A stretch of 26,495 nucleotides of DNA from Glomus cerebriforme. Lineage: Eukaryota > Glomeromycota > Glomeromycetes > Glomerales > Glomeraceae. Shown here in pieces: positions 2,576 through 12,425 of this stretch. Numbering within the stretch: position 1 is the first letter of the stretch; each line of letters begins with the position of its first letter. The stretch is taken from positions 21,268 through 47,762 of the forward strand of contig QKYT01000467.1 in the NCBI GenBank assembly GCA_003550305.1, given 5' to 3'. The notes under the pieces were generated by a model that searched no databases, was not told the origin of the DNA, and was given only the letters and a program-made list of their open reading frames with translations. The position numbers and the translations under genes were made by a program.

Positions 2576-3061
2576 TTTGGATTTTTCTTCAATTTTTTCT
2601 TCAATTTTTTACAGATATCTTTTTTATGCAAGTTTATAGTTATTATTATAGAAAAATAAAAAAGTATTTTTTATTATACTTATTATTTATTTATAAAAAT
2701 TTGCATAATTTTAAATAAATAAGTATTGTTTTTTCAAATATAATAAGTATATATTAAATATATCCTAATAATTATTATACAAAAAATCATTTTAAAAATA
2801 ATGTCATTATATATTGAATATATTTTAATAATTATGAAAAAAATAATATTATTTTAATAATTTTTCCAATAAGTAAAAATTTATGTAATTATACTTATTT
2901 GTTATATCAAAATATTTTATAAAATTATATACAAAAAAATATTTATTATGTTAATTTTAACCAAATATATATTGAACTAAGATTATATAGATAAATTAAT
3001 AAACAGATAAGATAATACTGAATAATTAATTATATTACAATATAATTATAATCAATTATAA
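2576..3061. other. AT-rich stretch, nothing recognised
   Basis: Very AT-rich sequence apart from short local duplications such as ATAATTAT. No coding signal, RNA gene or element boundary was seen. Confidence 0.6.
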
Positions 3062-3365
3062 TATTTGCAAAAATCCTATAGACTATAAATATATAAAATA
3101 TTTTAACTATAATATCACACAAATTTTACAGACCATAAATATACAAAATATTTTAACTGTGATATTATGCAAATTCTATAGACTGTAAATACTGTATATG
3201 AAATATTTTAATTGTAATATTATAAAAATCCTATGGATTATAAATATATAAAATATTTGACTGTAATATTACAAAAATCTTATAGAATCATAAATATACA
3301 AAATATTTTGACCATAATATTATGCAAATCTTATAAAATTATAAATATACAAAATATTTTAATTA
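3062..3365. repeat. About 51-bp tandem array, six copies
   Basis: A unit resembling AAATCCTATAGACTATAAAT followed by ATAYAAAATATTTTAAYTAT and a variable AATATTAYGC repeats with the (A/G)TAAAT mark near 3086, 3135, 3186, 3240, 3290 and 3341 (spacings 49-54 bp). Copies differ mostly by C/T and G/A changes. No ORF crosses the array. Confidence 0.8.
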
Positions 3366-3500
3366 TATTACTTACAAAACTATAAATTTACAAAGATTTT
3401 TGAAAATTTTTAGAATATTATGGCATTAACTTTATCAACTTACAAAATCATAAAATTTTGCAAATTTTCACATTAAAAAATTTTCTGATATAGTACTTAT

Positions 3501-4250: not shown

Positions 4251-4290
4251 TAATAAAGTAATTTATATTGATTCTTCTAAAAAATAATAA

Positions 4291-4341
4291 TACATCGGCA
4301 AATTTTTTAGTCTGTAGATCTGCGCAGGTCTGCAATATGAT
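4291..4341 (+). repeat. Left terminal inverted repeat of the 2.5-kb element
   Basis: This 51-bp arm pairs with 6736-6786. The four differences include T/C, C/T and G/A transitions within TCTGYAGATCTGYGCARGTC. Confidence 0.85.
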
Positions 4342-4861
4342 AATTTTATACAGATCTTCAGATATACTATCAAACTTCAAAAAAAAAATTTATGATTTCT
4401 ACGCAGATTATTTAAGTATTAAAAATCTGTGCAGAATTTTACAAAGCAAATCTTCAAAATAACTTCATTTGTAAATTTTTACTATATTTCTATTTATTAT
4501 TATCATTTTAATAAAATTGTATTTAAAATTAAATATTTTTTATTTTGTGAAAATTTTGATACATTTTGTAATAAAATATTTTTAGCAGTATTAAAACTTG
4601 GTATTAAAACTTTTCTAAGTTCTTTTAATTTAAAAAGTTCCTATCCAAATTAGCGATCTAAAATATTATGTGATATTTATTAATTCAAAGTTCAGCAAAT
4701 GTATTATTAATAAATGATATTTTCAAATAACTTACCATAGTGTCATAATCATCGTCGTCCATTGTTACTTTGCTTTCTTCAGCTTGTGATATCCAGGTAA
4801 ATGTTACATTAGTAATGTTTTTTTAATAAAAAAACCTATATCTATCTCCCCCGATACAAAT

Positions 4862-5570
4862 CTTTAAAGTCCAGGTCGAATCTGAAGCCAAAGTCCTACA
4901 AAAAAGTAAGAAACATTATGTTAGTAACATTTCATTAATAAAAAAAATTATATCTCTTCCGATACAAACCTTTGAAGTTTAGATTGAATCTGAAGCTGAA
5001 GTCCTACAACTGAAAAAGTAAGAAACGTTACATTAGTAACATTTCTTTAATAAAAAAAAATTATATCTTTCCTGATACAAACCTTCAAAGTTCAGGTCGA
5101 ATCTGAAGCTGAAGTCCTACAAAAAGTAAGAAATGTTATGTTAGTAATATTTCTTTAATAAAAAAAATCTATATTTATTTTTCCCAATATAAACCTTCAA
5201 AGTTCAGATCGAATCTGAAGCTGAAGTCCTACAAAAAAAGTAAGAAATGTTATATTAGTAATGTTTTTTTAATAAAAAAAAAACCTATATCTATCTTTCC
5301 CAATACAAACTTTCGAAATTCAGGTCAAATCTGAAGCTGAAGTCTTATAAAAAAGTAAGAAATGTTATATTAGTAATATTTTTTTAATAAAAAAAAACTA
5401 TATCTATCTTCCCCAATACAAACCTTCAAAGTCCAGGTCAAATCTGAAGCTGAAGTCCTACAAAAAAGAAAGAAATGTTACATTAGTAATATTTCTCTAA
5501 CAAAAAAAATCTATCTATCTCCTCCAATACAAACCATCGAAGTTTAGGTCAAATTCTGAAGCTGAAGTCC
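4862..5570 (-). repeat. Array A: seven tandem 108-115-bp units with splice-site architecture
   Basis: Exon-like blocks start (plus coordinates) at 4862, 4970, 5083, 5195, 5310, 5424 and 5535. On the minus strand each unit reads pyrimidine tract, TTGTAG|GACTTCAGCTTCAG..., about 34 nt in all, ending GAAG|GTTTGTAT. The spacer is 74-81 nt and contains TTACTAAT or TTACTAAC before CTTACTTTTTTGTAG. Copy 1 has lost the donor G (ATTTGT), and copy 5 has lost the GTAG acceptor. Because 34 is not a multiple of 3, the joined blocks would change frame and hit stops, so a protein is unlikely. Truncated pieces continue to about 5650. Confidence 0.85.
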
Positions 5571-5828
5571 TAATCTTTGAAGTCCAAGTCGAATCTAAAC
5601 CTATAAGAAAAAAAGAATGTTACATTAGTAATGTTTCTTTTAATACCCCTTCCCTTTACTATAAACCTATTTTGAAGTCCTATACCTGAAGACCTGAACC
5701 TATAAAAGAAAAAATGTTAGTAAACGTTCATTTAATAAAAAAAAATAAAAAAAAAAATTTTTTGAAGTCTTACCTTCAAACATTCATAAATAAATAAAAA
5801 TAAAAAAAATCAATTTTGAAGTTATTAC

Positions 5829-6450
5829 CTTCAAAATGGAAGTCCAGAGCTGTACTTCAGTTTCCTGAAACCTAAAGAAAATAAAAATAATATTAGTAAA
5901 CGTTATTAAATAAAAAAAAATGATAAAAAATAAATAAATTTTCAAAGTTATTACCTCAAAATGGGAAGTTCAGAACTTACATTTCAACTTCCAACCCTAA
6001 AAAAATACAAAAGAACATTAGTAAATATTCATAAATAAAAAAAAATAATAATAATCCATTTCAAAGTTATTACCTTTGAAATGGGAGTCTGAAACTGTAC
6101 TTTAGTTTCCTGGAACTAAAGAAAAATAAAAAGAACATTAGTAAATGTTCATAAATAAAAAAAAATGATAAAAAATAAATAAATTTTTGAAGTTATTACT
6201 GTATCTTTGAAATGGGAAATTCAGAACTTACATTTTGACTTCCAACTTAAAAAAAACAAAAGAACGTTAGTAAACGTTCATAAATAAAAAAAAATAATAA
6301 TAATCCATTTCGAAGTTATTATCTTCAAAATGGGAGTTCAGAGTTGTACTTCAGTTTTCTGAAACCTAAAGAAAATGTTAGTAAATGTTCATTTAATAAA
6401 AATATATACTTATTCTTTGAAAGTAAAGTCCAGAGATAATGAGAGAAATC
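5829..6450 (-). repeat. Array B: alternating 119-126-bp units with splice-site architecture
   Basis: Exon-like blocks lie at 5829-5871, 5955-5996, 6074-6115, 6200-6245 and 6323-6365, with a divergent one near 6410-6450. Two block types alternate, one starting TTTCAGGAAACT and one starting GGTTGGAAGT, so the higher-order period is about 245 bp. Minus-strand units end AAG or GAG|GTAATAAC, then a spacer of 77-84 nt with TTTACTAACG or TTTACTAATG, then TTTTCTTTAG. The 6323 block has ATAATAAC in place of the donor. The GGTTGG type has stops in all three frames. It shares the GAACATTAGTAAATGTTC motif with array C. Confidence 0.85.
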
Positions 6451-6735
6451 TGGAGTCCTGCAAAAAAAAAAATCTGCATGCTGCAGATTAAATATAAAGT
6501 TTGGAGAACTTTATACACAATAAGAATTAAAAAAACTAAGTTAAAAAAATTGAAAAACCAAGAAATTTAAATGAAATAAACTTTTTTTTTCACTTTGCAA
6601 ATTGTTGCAGATTTGTTTGTGAAAAATAACAATAATCTTATATTTTACAGATGTTTGCAAAATTCTATTAAAAGTTTGGCAATAATCTGCATATTACAGA
6701 TCGGCAGCAATTTATTAAAGAACTGTGCAAATATA

Positions 6736-6786
6736 ATGATATTGCAGACTTGCACAGATCTGCAGACTAAAAAATTTGCCGATGTA
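6736..6786 (-). repeat. Right terminal inverted repeat of the 2.5-kb element
   Basis: Inverted partner of 4291-4341, ending AAAAAATTTGCCGATGTA. Confidence 0.85.
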
Positions 6787-6799
6787 TATTATAGTAAAA

Positions 6800-7015
6800 T
6801 ATGAATTTCCTATAGGAAAATTATTACCAGATAGCCATTTTCTTGAATGGAAAGAAATGAGAAGTAATTAAATATTTAGTAAAAAAAAATCAAAAAAAAG
6901 TAGCAAAAAATCTTCCTCAATTACAATTGTATTATATAAAATATAATTTAGCCTTATATTGTAATAAAGAAAGAAGTAATTATTTACTTATAAAGAATAT
7001 GTTTAAAATAATATT
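6800..7015 (+). pseudogene. Transposase-like fossil, right part
   Basis: One frame reads EFPIGKLLPDSHFLEWKEMR, then SN, a stop and IFSKKKSKKSSKK. Another continues YYIKYNLALYCNKERSNYLL. The HF-x-EW core and the later spaced Y/C residues would suit a decayed zinc-ribbon tail such as that of piggyBac transposases (C-x2-C ... LC-x3-C with C-to-Y decay), but this is inference. It lies directly beyond the right TIR of the 4291-6786 element and probably continues the 4060-4250 fossil. Confidence 0.3.
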
Positions 7016-7171
7016 TTAATTATAATTTTTTAATATAATAATAGTTTATTTTTATAATTTCCACTTTGTATTTTTTTTATAAAAATAATTCATTTTTTAT
7101 AATTTTGAAATCTTATTTTTAAATCTTATAACTTAATTTAAATTTTATTATTAAGGTTTAATATAGTTACA

Positions 7172-7179
7172 ATCAAATT
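7172..7179. repeat. Left copy of 8-bp target duplication (ATCAAATT)
   Basis: Pairs with ATCAAACC at 13600-13607. The last two bases differ by C/T transitions. Eight base pairs is the standard hAT target duplication length. Confidence 0.6.
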
Positions 7180-7194
7180 CAATATTGATATTAG

Positions 7195-7385
7195 AAACTG
7201 AACTCATTCCAATTGATTTAATTAGATGATTTGAATAGTTGGACAATTGGATATAGTTCAATTGCATCCAATTGTTCAATTGGTCCAATACATATTTGTT
7301 AGATTTGAATTATGACCAATTCATCCAATTAGGCAATTGAATATGCAATTGGACTTAGTCCAATTCATCATCCAATCAAATTTTT
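7195..7385. repeat. Left subterminal CCAATTG cluster of the hAT element
   Basis: CCAATT, CAATTGG and near matches recur about a dozen times in both orientations over 190 bp, for example TTGTTCAATTGGTCCAAT. The matching cluster is at 13478-13595. Clustered short subterminal repeats are typical transposase binding arrays of hAT elements. Confidence 0.7.
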
Positions 7386-8212
7386 GTAATACATAATAAT
7401 AAATCATTAAATTTGAATTTCTGATAATCTATTTTTTTTAATTTGTGATAATAAAAATAATGTATAAAAAACATAAACTTAGTGGGTATTTTTTAATATT
7501 AGAAGAAAAATCTAATAAATATAATAATTATGCAGTTTGTCAAGAATGTATTAGAGATTTAGGTTAAGAGAAAGCAATAAAACAGGAGTTTACAAATACA
7601 AAATGTACATATGCAAAGCATTTCAAAAATTGTTTTTATTGGACTGAAAGACATTCTTCAGAAAAAACTCAAGTTATAATTCAGAAAGTTATGGAGTATG
7701 ATTCAAAAAGATCAATTAAACGATAATAATTATCAATAAATAATAGAAATAAAACTGAAGTATTAATATCGCTACTAGGTACATTAACACCTTTCTAAGG
7801 TACTTTTAATTTGAATAATTTTTTTTATAACTAAATCATCACATGCAAATAGTATAAGTAGCATGTCAGATATTTTATTTCAAAGCTTTAGTTTTCTTAA
7901 TAACTATATGTATCACAAATTAAAGTCAGAACAAATAGAAATATTTAAATGTTTACTATTAAATGTTACTATTGCTTATAGTTTTGCTTTTTATTAGGTT
8001 GATAATCCAACAGTTAAATAACTTTTAATCTAATGTTAAAGTTACCATATTGTAAGCAGCTTAGTGATAGAATTCTTAAAAAAATATCTGATAACTTTAC
8101 AAATATTATTCTTAATGATGCTATTAATAATGATCTTAGAATTAAAAATGTTTCTTGTTAAAATTTATTAGAGTCTGTTTTATTTACTTCAAAATGCAAT
8201 ATAAAATTATGC

Positions 8213-8662
8213 ATGTCTAAAATGTGTGCCAGGTTGGTGATGTAGTTAACCAATTGTAATGCAGAAAAATTTTGCAAAAAAAATATTTTCTCAATATATA
8301 AAGCTTTTAAAAAAAAATACAATATATGTATTTTTATTCACTTTGCAAGTTTACTTAGAGTAGTAAAGGTAATTTTGAAGGTCATTTTTGACTTATTCCA
8401 ATAAACCACTTTTTTTTTGTTAAAATTAATCTAACCATTTTTAGAAATAAATGATTAGCAAAGATGAATTTTTTTATTTTTTTTATATGTAAAGTCAAAA
8501 ATGATTTTTAAATCCCCCTTTTTGGCCTTTAAGTAAACTTGCAAAGTGACTAAAAATATAGTTACATTAAGAATTTTGGGAATTTTTTTATTAAGTTATA
8601 AACTTATTTTTTATAACATTTGAAAATTGCTACATCACTAACCTAGCACACATTCCAGACAT
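8213..8662. mobile_element. 450-bp MITE-like element nested in the hAT gene
   Basis: The ends are inverted. Left ATGTCTAAAATGTGTGCCAG and the right reverse complement ATGTCTGGAATGTGTGCTAG continue together through GGTTRGTGATGTAG. A second inverted block, CACTTTGCAAGTTTACTTA, lies further in (about 8340-8358 and 8530-8550). There is no ORF. The element sits between hAT fragments ending NIKLCMSK-like and resuming near 8690, so it inserted into the transposase gene. Flanking target duplication is not clear. Confidence 0.8.
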
Positions 8663-8885
8663 ATTATAATTATATAAAAAGTTAAGAATATTAATGAAAA
8701 AAAATGTACCAGTAAAATTATAATAAATGAAATGAAAAAATTATTTAATGAGCTTGAAAAAAAGAACATTAAAATTAATGGATTAATTATAGACTTAGCT
8801 TCAAAAAATATTGTTGTAAAGTAATTAATAATAAATTATTTTTAATTTTAGGTTTATAAAATTATTTAGAATTATTTATTAATTT

Positions 8886-9798
8886 GGGTTTAAATTTTGA
8901 ATACATTTGCATTCAAACGCATTCTTATCACGTAATTCATTATTTTTAAATTTGATTAGCTAATCAGTATGATTATTTATTTATTTATCTATTAAACACA
9001 TATAACTTAAAATATTTTTATGATTTGCTTTTTTTAATACAGTTAATAAACTGAAATAAGCCTTTATCAGTTATTGTTTTTATTGTTATCTTTTACCTTC
9101 TGGAGTTCATTATGTCTCTAAGAATTGTTCTTGCAAATAAATTTAAATAAAAGAACATTAGTAATGCCCTTTAATGAAATTAACAAAAAAACTAACAATA
9201 AAAACTTACCTTTCGTTTCCTTTCATCTCCTTTTATCTTCAGAGGGCATTTCTACAAAAAAAACCTACCTTTCATGAGTTTCGTCTCCTTTTATCTCCAG
9301 AAGGTGTTCCTATAAAAAAAAGTCATAAAAAGAACATTAGAAAATGTTTTTAAATGAAATTAACAAAGAAAAAAATAAAAAAAAACTCACTTTTTGTCTC
9401 CTTTCATCTTCAGGAGATATTCCTATAAAAAAAAATCATGAAAAGAACCGTTAAAAATATTCTTAAATAAAATTAACAATAAAAAAAGAATGAAACCTAC
9501 CTTTTCATCTCCTTTCATCTCCAGGAAGTGTTTCTATAAAAAAAATCATGAAAAGAACATTAGAAAATATTCTTAAATGAAATTAATGAAGAAAAACAAA
9601 AAAAACATTTACCTTTTGTTTTCAGAAGTCCATTTCATTTTCAGGTATAAATAAAATTAATTAAAAGAACATTAAAAAATGTTCCTAATAAAAAAAATTA
9701 TTGATCGATAATCTGAATTACATAACTAATAAAATTTAAAAATCAGATCACGTGATAGAAGATGTGTTCGAACACAGATGCGTTTAAATTTTAAACTC
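8886..9798. mobile_element. 0.9-kb TIR element carrying exon/intron-like array C, nested in the hAT gene
   Basis: The left arm 8886-8973 (GGGTTTAAATTTTGAATAC...) aligns with the reverse complement of 9710-9798 (GAGTTTAAAATTTAAACGC...) over about 85 bp. Shared blocks are TATCACGT and TTTTTAAATTT. Many differences are CG versus TG or CA. The right arm still holds the intact palindromes GATCACGTGAT-like (9746-9756) and TGTGTTCGAACACA (9764-9777). There is no transposase. The interior is mostly array C. The host transposase reading breaks at about 8822 and resumes at about 9865. Confidence 0.75.
9210..9650 (-). repeat. Array C: four to five tandem units with splice-site architecture
   Basis: Exon-like blocks at 9210-9251, 9269-9309, 9391-9422, 9501-9533 and from 9613 are read on the minus strand as ATAG|GAACACCTTCTGGAG or a close variant, ending AAAG|GTAGGT, GTAAGT or GTGAGT. 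Full spacers are 78-81 nt and contain TTTTCTAATGTTCTTTT before TTTTTTTATAG. One spacer (9252-9268) has shrunk to 17 nt, too short to splice. The 9501-9533 block is 33 nt and open in one frame (KHFLEMKGDEK); its neighbour keeps EYLLKMKGD. This array is therefore the one most compatible with former coding micro-exons. Confidence 0.8.
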
Positions 9799-11404
9799 TA
9801 TTAATTTTATTGATTTAGAAAATGATTATATCTCTAATATCAGGATAAGATATTTTTGCTATGCTTTTTATGTATCAGATGAATTTGTATATTGAAAATA
9901 TATTTAAAGAGTCATCAAGTCTGAATAATACTGCTAAAGGGGTTATTACTTTTTTTAGTTAGTCAAAAATATGGCTTAAATAACTTTAAAATGAGCAAGT
10001 AGCTATTTACAAAGTTTATATTGTATTAGTAATTTCAGCTATTACTCGATAGAACTTATACTATTACTGTTTTGCTAGTTTATTAAAAACAAAAAAGATT
10101 TTACATGTATGTATAATGTAATAAAATGATGTTTATTTTTAATTAAACAATTTTTATTTTTTTTTTAGAATCTTACAATGAAAATAAATGAAAAGATTAT
10201 TTCTGATGGCTATGATTTTTCTGAAAAATATTTACAATGCATTTTAGATAATAATTGATGAATTTTCATTAAAAAAATTGAAATCTTTTTAATTTTATAT
10301 TGTGTAACATTTAACAAACTTTAATGACAAAATTCATGATTATATAAAGTTCTTCATAGATTTGATAATATAGTTTAGTTATAATATTTAAAACATTTGA
10401 AAATCAAGAATTAGCTATTACTTTTTTTTCAAAAATTGAGTAATAATAAAGAGATTGGAAATAGCCTTTCTTGTTACTATTATTTTTGCTACATCCATTT
10501 TATCATGATACAAAATTTAATTTTGCATTAAATTTATTATTTTCTTATCTAGCAAAATAAGTTTTATATTATTATTATATATGATTTAAGAAGGAACTAA
10601 CAGTTTTATTAGCTAAATTTGAAGAATATAAATCAAAAAAATATCCTTATACTAATTCTATTTCTAAGTAATTTAAAAATAATATTTTAGATTATTGGAA
10701 TTTTATAAAAGGTTATTCAAACAAATTTTTTTAATTACTATATTAACAGTTTTATTGGAATGGTTATTTTTAACAATGGAATGGTATTACTCAAAATGAA
10801 AAAATTGATTAAAGGTACAATATATTTATAGCATATTTATTTATATAATTTAACTACAAAATTGTTTATAATATTTTTTTTTTGGTATTTTAGGTGGAAA
10901 AAGTGTTAAGTTTAGTCCAAATTTATGCAAGTATATAAAGATAATAATAGCTTTATGAGTTAGATTAACTAAAATAGCTTGAAATCTTATGCTAATTTTG
11001 CCAAATTTTTACTATAGTTTTATGGAAATTGCTAAACATTATTTGGATGATTATTATCTGGATGATTGTCACCTAGTATTTATCGTTTGGACAATCATTA
11101 TCTGGATTTTTTTTTAAATATATCATATGTTTTATAATAGAGCATTTTTATTCTTCAGGATGAAAAAAATAAACTCTCAGGGTCTAGGCAAATTAAACTA
11201 AACCTTTAACTTTTTTTTAAATAAAAAAAAAATTTAAACTTTTAAGCTTTTTTTATTTTAAAAATTTTTACATTTTTATATATGTAACAAAACTTTATTT
11301 GTTATTGATTTAAAAAGATTATATGTTTATTATTAATTAAATAAAAAAGATATTGTCAAACTCATTTATCAAAAGTTAAGATTTATATTTATTTTTTAAT
11401 AGGA

Positions 11405-12425
11405 ATATGCTAATAAAAATCAGAAACAGCAATAAAAAAACAAAAATGTAAAGAAGAATAATAAAAACAAAAAGGTGAATAAAAAGAATAAAGAAAGATA
11501 AAAGGAAAACAAAATAAACAATAAAAAATGAAATAAAAGAGGAAAATAATAAAAGGGAAATGAAAGAAAGAAATGATAGAAGGAAGACGAAAGAAAGAGC
11601 GTATAAATGGGAATGAAAGAAAATAGTAAATAAATGAAAGAAGTGAAGAAAGAGAAGTGAAAGAAAGAAACAAAAAAAAGGGAAGAAAGGTGAGTAAAAC
11701 AAAGAAATGATAAAAAAAAATGAAACAAGAAACATTCAAAAGGGGAATAAAATGAATGAAAAGAAAAACAAAAAAAAATAAAAGGGAATGAATGAAAAAT
11801 AATAAAAGAAAAAAGGAGAACAAAAAAATAAAGGAAGGAAGCAGGAATAAAAAAAGAACAAAAAAAAATGAAATAAAGATGAAAAAATAGGTTAAAGAAA
11901 TGGACAAAAAAATAGGACAAAAAAATGTAATGAAAAAGAATAAAAATGAAAGAAAATTAAAATAAATAAAAAGAATAATAGGGGACAAAAAGGGAATAAT
12001 AAAAATGAGATGAAAAATGAGATGAAAAATTATTAAAATAATGAAAAGAAGATAATTAGGAGGAGAAAATGAAGGAACCAACTAATCAAATGAAAAGCAA
12101 ACCCATAAAATAAGAAAAAAATTAAGTTAATAAGGAATGGAATGTAATTAATAATCAAAAANAAAAAAAAACATACAATAATGTAAAGAAGAAAAAGAAG
12201 AGCAAAAGACCTAAAAATAAAAAATGAAATAAAGTTAGTAAGAAGCAATGGAATGTAAGAAATAAAATATAAGAATGAAATAAAAAAATAAAAACTTAGA
12301 AGAAATACAAAATAACAAACCTTAATTGCAAAATCAAGAAAGTAAAAGAATCTAAAGAAATGAAATAAAGTTAATAAAGAATAAGTGTAAAAAATAACAT
12401 AAAGAAAAAGAAAGAAAAAATATAT
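11405..12425. repeat. About 1-kb purine-rich tract (G/A on plus strand)
   Basis: For about 1020 bases the plus strand is overwhelmingly A and G, in blocks such as GAAAGAAAGAAATGATAGAA, with sparse T and very few C. The complementary pyrimidine strand rarely forms stop codons. This creates long minus-strand open frames (up to 223 aa) made of F, S, L, I and Y. They overlap each other in different frames and look like artefacts. Such asymmetric tracts can form triplex DNA or R-loops. One N is at 12162, a sign of assembly difficulty. Confidence 0.85.

What the first reader, a model, noticed from the sequence alone, without database searches (positions are those of the whole stretch)
4862..9650. 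Minisatellites whose units are exon-intron pairs
On the minus strand arrays A, B and C are made of 33-46-nt blocks separated by intron-like spacers. Nearly every spacer has a donor (GTTTGT, GTAATA, GTAGGT), a TACTAAY- or CTAAT-like branch site, a pyrimidine run and TAG or AAG. I measured 74-81 nt in A, 77-84 nt in B and 78-81 nt for intact spacers in C. The real introns of the three genes here are mostly 64-99 nt. Array A blocks (34 nt) cannot keep a frame, so the splicing signals appear to have been amplified without protein constraint; array C retains two open blocks. Possible readings: a multi-exon non-coding RNA, a decayed micro-exon gene, or intron-generating (introner-like) DNA. I know of no described family like this.
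Basis: partly seen in the sequence, partly recalled or inferred. Interest (0 to 1): 0.9.

Follow-up and report, generated by a model that had tools for sequence, protein, structure and literature searches.

The report
Transposons carrying tandem exon-intron units
In a mycorrhizal fungus, two different kinds of jumping DNA each carry rows of tiny exon-plus-intron repeats whose splice signals are shared even between repeats that otherwise differ greatly, which suggests mobile DNA that the cell could splice into short RNAs; no RNA data were available to show that it does.

Summary
The genome is Glomus (Rhizophagus) cerebriforme, an arbuscular mycorrhizal fungus. Arrays A and B lie inside a 2,492-bp TIR transposon (4293-6784, 2-bp target duplication) that shares only its ends with ~5.9-kb elements, one of which has a Plavaka transposase domain. 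Array C lies in a different, Mutator-like element (8886-9798, exact 9-bp duplication TATTAATTT). The DNA between them belongs to neither. At least 86 genomic places carry A/B/D-type arrays, and 32 places match C (lower bounds). Fuller copies chain up to 17 introns on one strand (score 374, shuffle maximum 117). Across 11 diverged unit types aligned without anchoring on splice signals, the only conserved G or C columns are the last exon base, donor G, branch C and acceptor G. Present copies decay like neutral transposons; in array A the splice sites are no better kept than other Gs. Database proteins of this species contain spliced micro-exons (one significant hit, two weak). I read these as splicing-competent exon-intron minisatellites carried by Pack-TYPE-like elements. 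In vivo splicing, coding role and source gene are unproven; introner activity has no support here.

The parts
4293..6784 (-). TIR element of a Plavaka family, 2492 bp, array read on the minus strand; target duplication TA at 4291-4292 and 6785-6786
   Evidence: TIRs and 2-bp duplications, 11 of 12 copies; only the ends are shared with 5.9-kb copies, one of which has a Plavaka domain; three ORFs of the window element have no Pfam match
4293..4358 (.). left terminal inverted repeat
   Evidence: 87% to the right TIR
6718..6784 (.). right terminal inverted repeat
6377..6480 (-). putative first exon(s) upstream of array B
   Evidence: sequence; shared with other array elements; inferred
5722..6376 (-). 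array B: alternating B1/B2 exons with introns (77 and 84 nt where both signals are intact)
4799..5572 (-). array A: 34-nt exons with introns of ~73-80 nt
4736..4793 (-). penultimate exon (..MDDDDYDTM) of the minus-strand gene of the 5.9-kb elements, its 5' part replaced by array sequence; boundary read by eye
   Evidence: compare
4625..4657 (-). last coding exon of the same gene (IANLDRNFLN, stop); 78-nt intron at 4658-4735; read by eye
8886..9798 (-). Mutator-like TIR element, 913 bp; 9-bp target duplication TATTAATTT at 8877-8885 and 9799-9807
   Evidence: 6 of 7 copies with an exact 9-bp duplication
9195..9605 (-). array C: 32-41-nt exons with introns of ~78-81 nt

Best explanation
The arrays are splicing-competent cargo of two families of TIR transposons without their own transposase, one Plavaka-derived and one Mutator-like, in Glomus cerebriforme. 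A transcript started near the right-hand TIR would run along the minus strand through a row of 22-43-nt exons, each followed by a complete ~75-nt spliceosomal intron. Because each repeat is a whole exon plus a whole intron, units can be gained or lost by unequal exchange without breaking splicing of the rest. In the window copy the row joins into the last two exons of a second gene of the parent transposon, making a chimeric transcription unit. Shown: TIRs, target duplications, many copies, a Plavaka domain in a same-TIR element, strand specificity, retention of splice signals across diverged units, neutral-looking decay of present copies. Inferred: transcription, actual splicing, the route of amplification, any benefit to the element such as harmless insertion into genes. 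Most likely the array began as a captured or element-born micro-exon gene whose coding role was lost or is marginal.
For: TIR and target-duplication anatomy. Same-TIR ~5.9-kb relatives, one with Plavaka PF18759 at E 3.6e-7, 30.1 bits against cut-off 26.3. Array-strand chain scores above all 40 shuffles in 8 of 8 array elements. Unanchored alignment of 11 unit types: 4 G/C columns conserved at 80% or more, all of them splice positions; 25 shuffled sets give a mean of 0.04 and at most 1. In B1, B2 and C the splice Gs rank at or near the top among non-CpG Gs. All three signals intact in 123 of 184 A, 74 of 110 B1, 78 of 114 B2 (the B sets overlap) and 31 of 33 C units. Database proteins of this species contain A and B exon translations: P0001 in all three A frames, P0003 in two A frames and one frame each of B1 and B2, above all 200 shuffles (P0002 above in two A frames, by less).
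Against: No RNA evidence of any kind. In array A the splice Gs are not better conserved than other non-CpG Gs. The window copy's intron count is within reach of shuffles. The palindrome around the branch site could be a transposon motif; covariation there is weak (48 complementary pairs of 144 against 38.1 expected, p 0.036) and absent at the donor palindrome (30 of 89 against 28.1, p 0.36). Only P0001 is a significant hit to the repeat query (E 7.6e-5); P0002 and P0003 have E 1.7 and 2.8. P0001 and P0002 were not matched exactly in the genome held, and P0001 departs from my exon calls at several places. No source gene was found.
Confidence: 0.65

Rival explanations
1. Captured host protein-coding micro-exon gene: both transposon families picked up pieces of a host gene family whose protein is built from 7-14-residue exons; the arrays are its decayed remains.
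For: Database proteins read the exons as coding. The majority A exon is open in all three frames, as it must be if 34-nt exons are read in sequence (my reading), and 147 of 184 A exons keep 34 nt. Many stops in the copies are of the C-to-T or G-to-A kind (my reading).
Against: Other exon lengths follow no frame rule (C mostly 31, 32, 33, 39 and 41 nt; B1 43 or 42; B2 43, 42 or 41). Spliced chains of four copies have stops in all frames. The majority B1 exon has TGA in the frame demanded by B1-B2 alternation (my reading). Searches with the repeat and with P0001 found only this species' proteins (candidates capped).
Confidence: 0.3
2. Hairpin-rich transposon satellite: palindromic motifs (TTCGAAG..CTTCGAA and GAACGTTTACTAACGTTC) serve replication or transposase binding; splice-like motifs are side effects in AT-rich DNA.
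For: Donor and branch positions sit in or beside inverted repeats in several unit types; fold z-scores of five units run from -0.7 to -4.5. The branch palindrome occurs 382 times against 1 for the reversed control.
Against: The acceptor (pyrimidine run, YAG) lies outside the palindromes yet its G is kept in 10 of 11 unit types; array A shows no donor hairpin in the fold but has GT in its majority sequence. Two element families share the design. Covariation is weak or absent.
Confidence: 0.18
3. Introner-like DNA: units insert singly into genes and become introns.
For: Units carry the signals of a working intron; one isolated unit with exon-like flanks, L064, was seen.
Against: Four unit profiles found nothing convincing in the host-gene half of the window (best E 0.14). 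Of two apparent singletons fetched, L065 proved to be an array. TIRs and target duplications flank the whole array, not the unit. No genome-wide intron survey was possible.
Confidence: 0.05

Closest known systems
Tgm-Express1, soybean CACTA element with captured gene fragments (PMC1947982, abstract and outline seen)
   Same: CACTA-group element whose inner exons and introns are kept; there they were shown to be spliced into chimeric RNAs
   Different: cargo is five unrelated host gene fragments, not a tandem array of one exon-intron unit; plant; RNA shown
Pack-TYPE transposons, Pack-CACTA and Pack-MULE (PMC8903248, start of abstract and passages seen)
   Same: TIR elements of the same two broad groups without transposase, carrying gene-like exons
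   Different: defined by captured host coding DNA; no donor gene found here; described there in plants; cargo here is repeated and largely frame-free
Plavaka transposons of Rhizophagus irregularis (PMC11075540, start of abstract and passages seen)
   Same: same transposase group, placed there in CACTA/CMC/EnSpm
   Different: no exon-intron arrays are mentioned in the passages that I saw; the word intron does not occur in its main text
Introners (PMC9860276, start of abstract and passages seen)
   Same: mobile DNA with splice signals, some families with TIRs and target duplications
   Different: introners create introns in genes; here each element holds many introns and exons
SP7-like effectors of mycorrhizal fungi (PMC11333574, passages seen)
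   Same: repeat proteins with a conserved intron before the first repeat, same fungal group
   Different: signal peptide and hydrophilic repeats with a conserved island; not recognised here by eye

Membership tests
Plavaka (CMC/CACTA group) | Plavaka transposase in an element with the same ends | tested here: met
   L055 ORF, PF18759 E 3.6e-7, 30.1 bits against cut-off 26.3; the window element shares only the ends and three of its ORFs have no Pfam match
Plavaka (CMC/CACTA group) | TIRs with short 2-3-bp target duplication (recalled) | tested here: met
   2 bp in 11 of 12 elements, never 3
Plavaka (CMC/CACTA group) | CACTA termini (recalled; typical of plant CACTA) | tested here: not met
   ends are CATCGGCAAA or close variants; so I say Plavaka-derived, not CACTA proper
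Mutator-like (MULE) | TIRs with target duplication of ~9 bp (recalled) | tested here: met
   exact 9 bp in 6 of 7; the seventh, L048, has none
Mutator-like (MULE) | MULE transposase in an element with the same TIRs | tested here: inconclusive
   a MULE domain at C369:89157-89426 lies 3.5 kb from a family-C TIR; second TIR not seen; with 150 MULE hits listed this could be chance
Pack-TYPE | non-autonomous TIR element with target duplication | tested here: met
Pack-TYPE | contains DNA captured from a host coding gene | tested here: inconclusive
   no donor gene found by two protein searches or the own-genome searches
Introner | individual copies are introns of many host genes | tested here: inconclusive
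   no clear case found, but no genome-wide intron survey was possible
SP7-like effector | secreted protein: signal peptide then hydrophilic repeats | not tested
   no signal-peptide tool; judged by eye on P0001-P0003
Protein-coding micro-exon gene | one reading frame open through the spliced exons | tested here: not met
   stops in all frames in 4 of 4 spliced copies (L036, L045, L051, window); decayed copies, so the ancestor is not excluded

The most novel reading that the evidence does not exclude
A self-contained exon-plus-intron minisatellite is a mobile module that entered two transposon superfamilies and was kept by selection for splicing rather than for protein: elements with such cargo could hide in transcripts, land in genes at little cost and supply ready-made micro-exons.
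Probability: 0.25. Interest if true: 0.88.

Novelty: new variant of a known kind. Interest (0 to 1): 0.66.

Why it matters
Gene-capturing transposons are best described in plants (recalled), and minisatellites are not known to me as carriers of whole splicing units. If these arrays are spliced, they are a natural, many-copy test of how far splice signals alone can be selected, of how tandem exon arrays and new micro-exon genes arise, and of how transposons live inside transcribed regions of the repeat-rich genomes of mycorrhizal fungi. The exact boundaries make the idea testable with ordinary RNA data.

Tried and rejected
SP7-like effector origin: dropped after passages of PMC11333574; P0001-P0003 look unlike it by eye. 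RNA hairpin under selection: covariation p 0.036 at the branch palindrome and 0.36 at the donor palindrome, not pursued. Intron counting alone on the window: shuffles reach the same counts, so I used chain scores. Rfam: 0 matches at gathering in window, L045 and L059. Pfam scans of other pieces: four L054 ORF pieces had nothing over cut-off, two with weak sub-threshold hits; one L056 piece, three window-element ORFs, P0001 and P0002 had none, P0003 one sub-threshold hit. The minus-strand gene of the 5.9-kb elements was not scanned. Exact placement of P0001 and P0002 in the genome: not achieved (55 looked only at fetched loci). The contig length of P0002 (269313) equals that of our C1110, but that of the TAF3-like protein (95573) differs from our C597 (72010), so the assemblies may not be cut alike. 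Literature: ten searches of the open library; none of the listed papers showed, in title or abstract start, an exon-intron minisatellite in a transposon; (Rhizophagus with microexons) gave 0 papers; most subscription papers are not in that library.
Full report
WHAT AND WHERE. The window lies in G000:C597. A host protein of the window with histone-fold and PHD domains (TAF3-like, name recalled) is 100% identical over 97% of the query to C1645_831724 of Glomus cerebriforme, so the organism is this mycorrhizal fungus (taxid 658196). The PHD, DnaJ and kinase domains of the neighbouring genes are ordinary.

THE TWO ELEMENTS. A genome search with the finding's interval gave 512 candidate places, 40 of them scored. 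The stretch 6718-6792 recurred inverted at 4284-4358, and in like places of other copies, which exposed terminal inverted repeats. A script over the fetched loci found 12 pairs of this TIR, 1839 to 5996 bp long, with the same two bases on both sides in 11 of 12 (L055 fails). The window element is 4293-6784 with TA on both sides. Array C belongs to something else: its copies (L048-L053 fetched) share other TIRs, with an exact 9-bp target duplication in 6 of 7 (L048 fails), TATTAATTT in the window. One copy, L052, lies in a stretch with B-type units. The ~2.1 kb between the two elements belongs to neither.

THE PARENT. Left and right ends searched separately gave several pairs on one contig, about 5.9 to 10.4 kb apart; three of about 5.9 kb were fetched (L054-L056). 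They share W:4293-4790 and 6514-6784, wholly or in part, with the window element at 86-93% in the main blocks, and gave 0 hits at E 1 or better with the A, B1, B2 and C profiles. One ORF of L055 is Plavaka transposase (PF18759, E 3.6e-7). On the minus strand L055 has a second gene ending ..MDDDDYDTM, intron, IANLDRNFLN stop (my reading; the donor of that intron is mutated in L055, and L054 differs slightly). The window and four other copies (L009, L017, L043, L044) keep these last exons, and their array runs straight into the first of them. Eight other copies (L014, L015, L016, L023, L024, L037, L038, L045) end instead in a different last exon, followed by a tRNA B-box-like stretch where not mutated; L027, L036 and L059 reach that same exon after further units.

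THE UNITS. L027, L036 and L059 carry, beyond A and B, about eight further micro-exons (D) of different sequence, most ending in TTCRAAG or close variants before GT. D-type DNA is at 39 places in the 40 scored rows (203 candidates). Merging typed places closer than 6 kb gives 59 A/B, 86 A/B/D and 32 C places, lower bounds or approximate. L036 chains 17 introns of 57-92 nt in a single run.

IS IT MORE THAN CHANCE. In the decayed window copy the number of chained introns is within reach of shuffles, but scores are not: W element 186 against at most 107; L059 259 against 123; L027 161 against 103; L036 374 against 117; L063 214 against 96; C copies L048 and L051 154 and 159 against 67 and 52; L045 281 against 110. 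The opposite strand exceeded its own shuffles in 1 of 8 (W, 72 against 66). The parent element L055 scored 99 against 100 on the minus and 54 against 85 on the plus strand, that is, nothing (all; 40 shuffles each; hand-set weights).

CONSERVATION. (i) Present copies: profiles gave 184 A units in 36 loci, 110 B1 in 33, 114 B2 in 31, 33 C in 7; the B1 and B2 sets overlap, since the profiles cross-match; 78, 35, 5 and 1 profile hits were dropped, mostly for not spanning the junctions. CpG sites are strongly decayed. Among non-CpG Gs the donor G is equalled or beaten by 10 of 13 others in A, 1 of 10 in B1, 0 of 7 in B2, 1 of 12 in C; the acceptor G by 9, 1, 0 and 2. So A shows no protection, B and C do. 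(ii) Deep comparison: 11 diverged unit types were cut inside exons and aligned by MAFFT without anchoring. Of 47 columns at 80% or more, 31 are T and 12 are A; the four G/C columns are exon-last G (10 of 11), donor G (11), branch C (10) and acceptor G (10). In 25 shuffled sets G/C columns averaged 0.04, at most 1. One mis-cut piece, D2, was dropped before this count (it was), and one expected D exon was not found by my marks. The unit types share ancestry, and I defined the D units after seeing their exons, so this is strong but not independent evidence.

CODING OR NOT. Exon lengths other than A's follow no frame rule, and spliced chains of four copies have stops in all frames. Yet a search with the translated A repeat found three proteins of G. 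cerebriforme: P0001 at E 7.6e-5, P0002 and P0003 only at 1.7 and 2.8 (7996 candidates scored). A direct comparison supports P0001 (all three A frames) and P0003 (two A frames, one frame each of B1 and B2) above 200 shuffles, and P0002 more weakly; P0001 and P0002 are related at E 4.5e-6. By eye, P0001 follows several D exons, skips or shortens others and reads partly through one A intron, so it shows that a gene finder sees such splice sites, not that they are used. P0001 and P0002 were not found exactly in the genome held.

STRUCTURE. Donor and branch lie in hairpins in several unit types, but folding of five units is only moderately better than shuffles (z -0.7 to -4.5) and covariation is weak or absent.

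INTRONER TEST. A branch-palindrome pattern has 382 matches against 1 for the reversed control; of the 100 listed most are clustered at array spacing. Two apparent singletons were read: L065 is an array with several B-like units; L064 is an isolated intron-like unit with exon-like neighbours. Four unit profiles found nothing convincing in the host-gene half of the window.

CONCLUSION. Two transposon families of one fungal genome, by their ends from different superfamilies, carry the same unusual design: tandem units that are each a tiny exon with a complete intron. It works like Tgm-Express1 (abstract, PMC1947982), where inner exons of a CACTA element are spliced, but with a tandem array as cargo. 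Membership: Plavaka-derived (met), Mutator-like by TIR and duplication (transposase not shown), Pack-TYPE unproven without a donor gene. On checking, the support from database proteins proved weaker than first written (two of three hits are not significant on their own), so confidence went from 0.66 to 0.65.

Noticed in passing
8200-8676: Another inverted-repeat (MITE-like) element between the two array elements; 89% copies at C578:73541 and C369:113861.
   Followed up: partly
L064 (C247:361450-362150, minus strand): An isolated intron-like unit with the GAACGTTTACTAACGTTC branch palindrome between exon-like stretches; no A or C profile hit and only a weak B2 hit to the palindrome region.
   Followed up: partly
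L045, L014, L015 and similar, just after the last exon: tRNA B-box-like GGTTCGATTCC (motif recalled) on the opposite strand, perhaps a SINE fused to the element's end in one subfamily; no Rfam match in L045.
   Followed up: partly
C369:89157-89426 and C369:92879-92959: MULE transposase domain 3.5 kb from a family-C TIR: candidate autonomous partner.
   Followed up: no
L037 flanks: Element inserted in a TTAGGATTA-like repeat, possibly subtelomeric.
   Followed up: no
117-377, 3059-3379 and 11415-12320: Further minisatellites (61 bp, 50 bp) and a purine-rich stretch of short repeats.
   Followed up: no
L056 (C369:219150-225350): Long run of N inside one 5.9-kb element.
   Followed up: no
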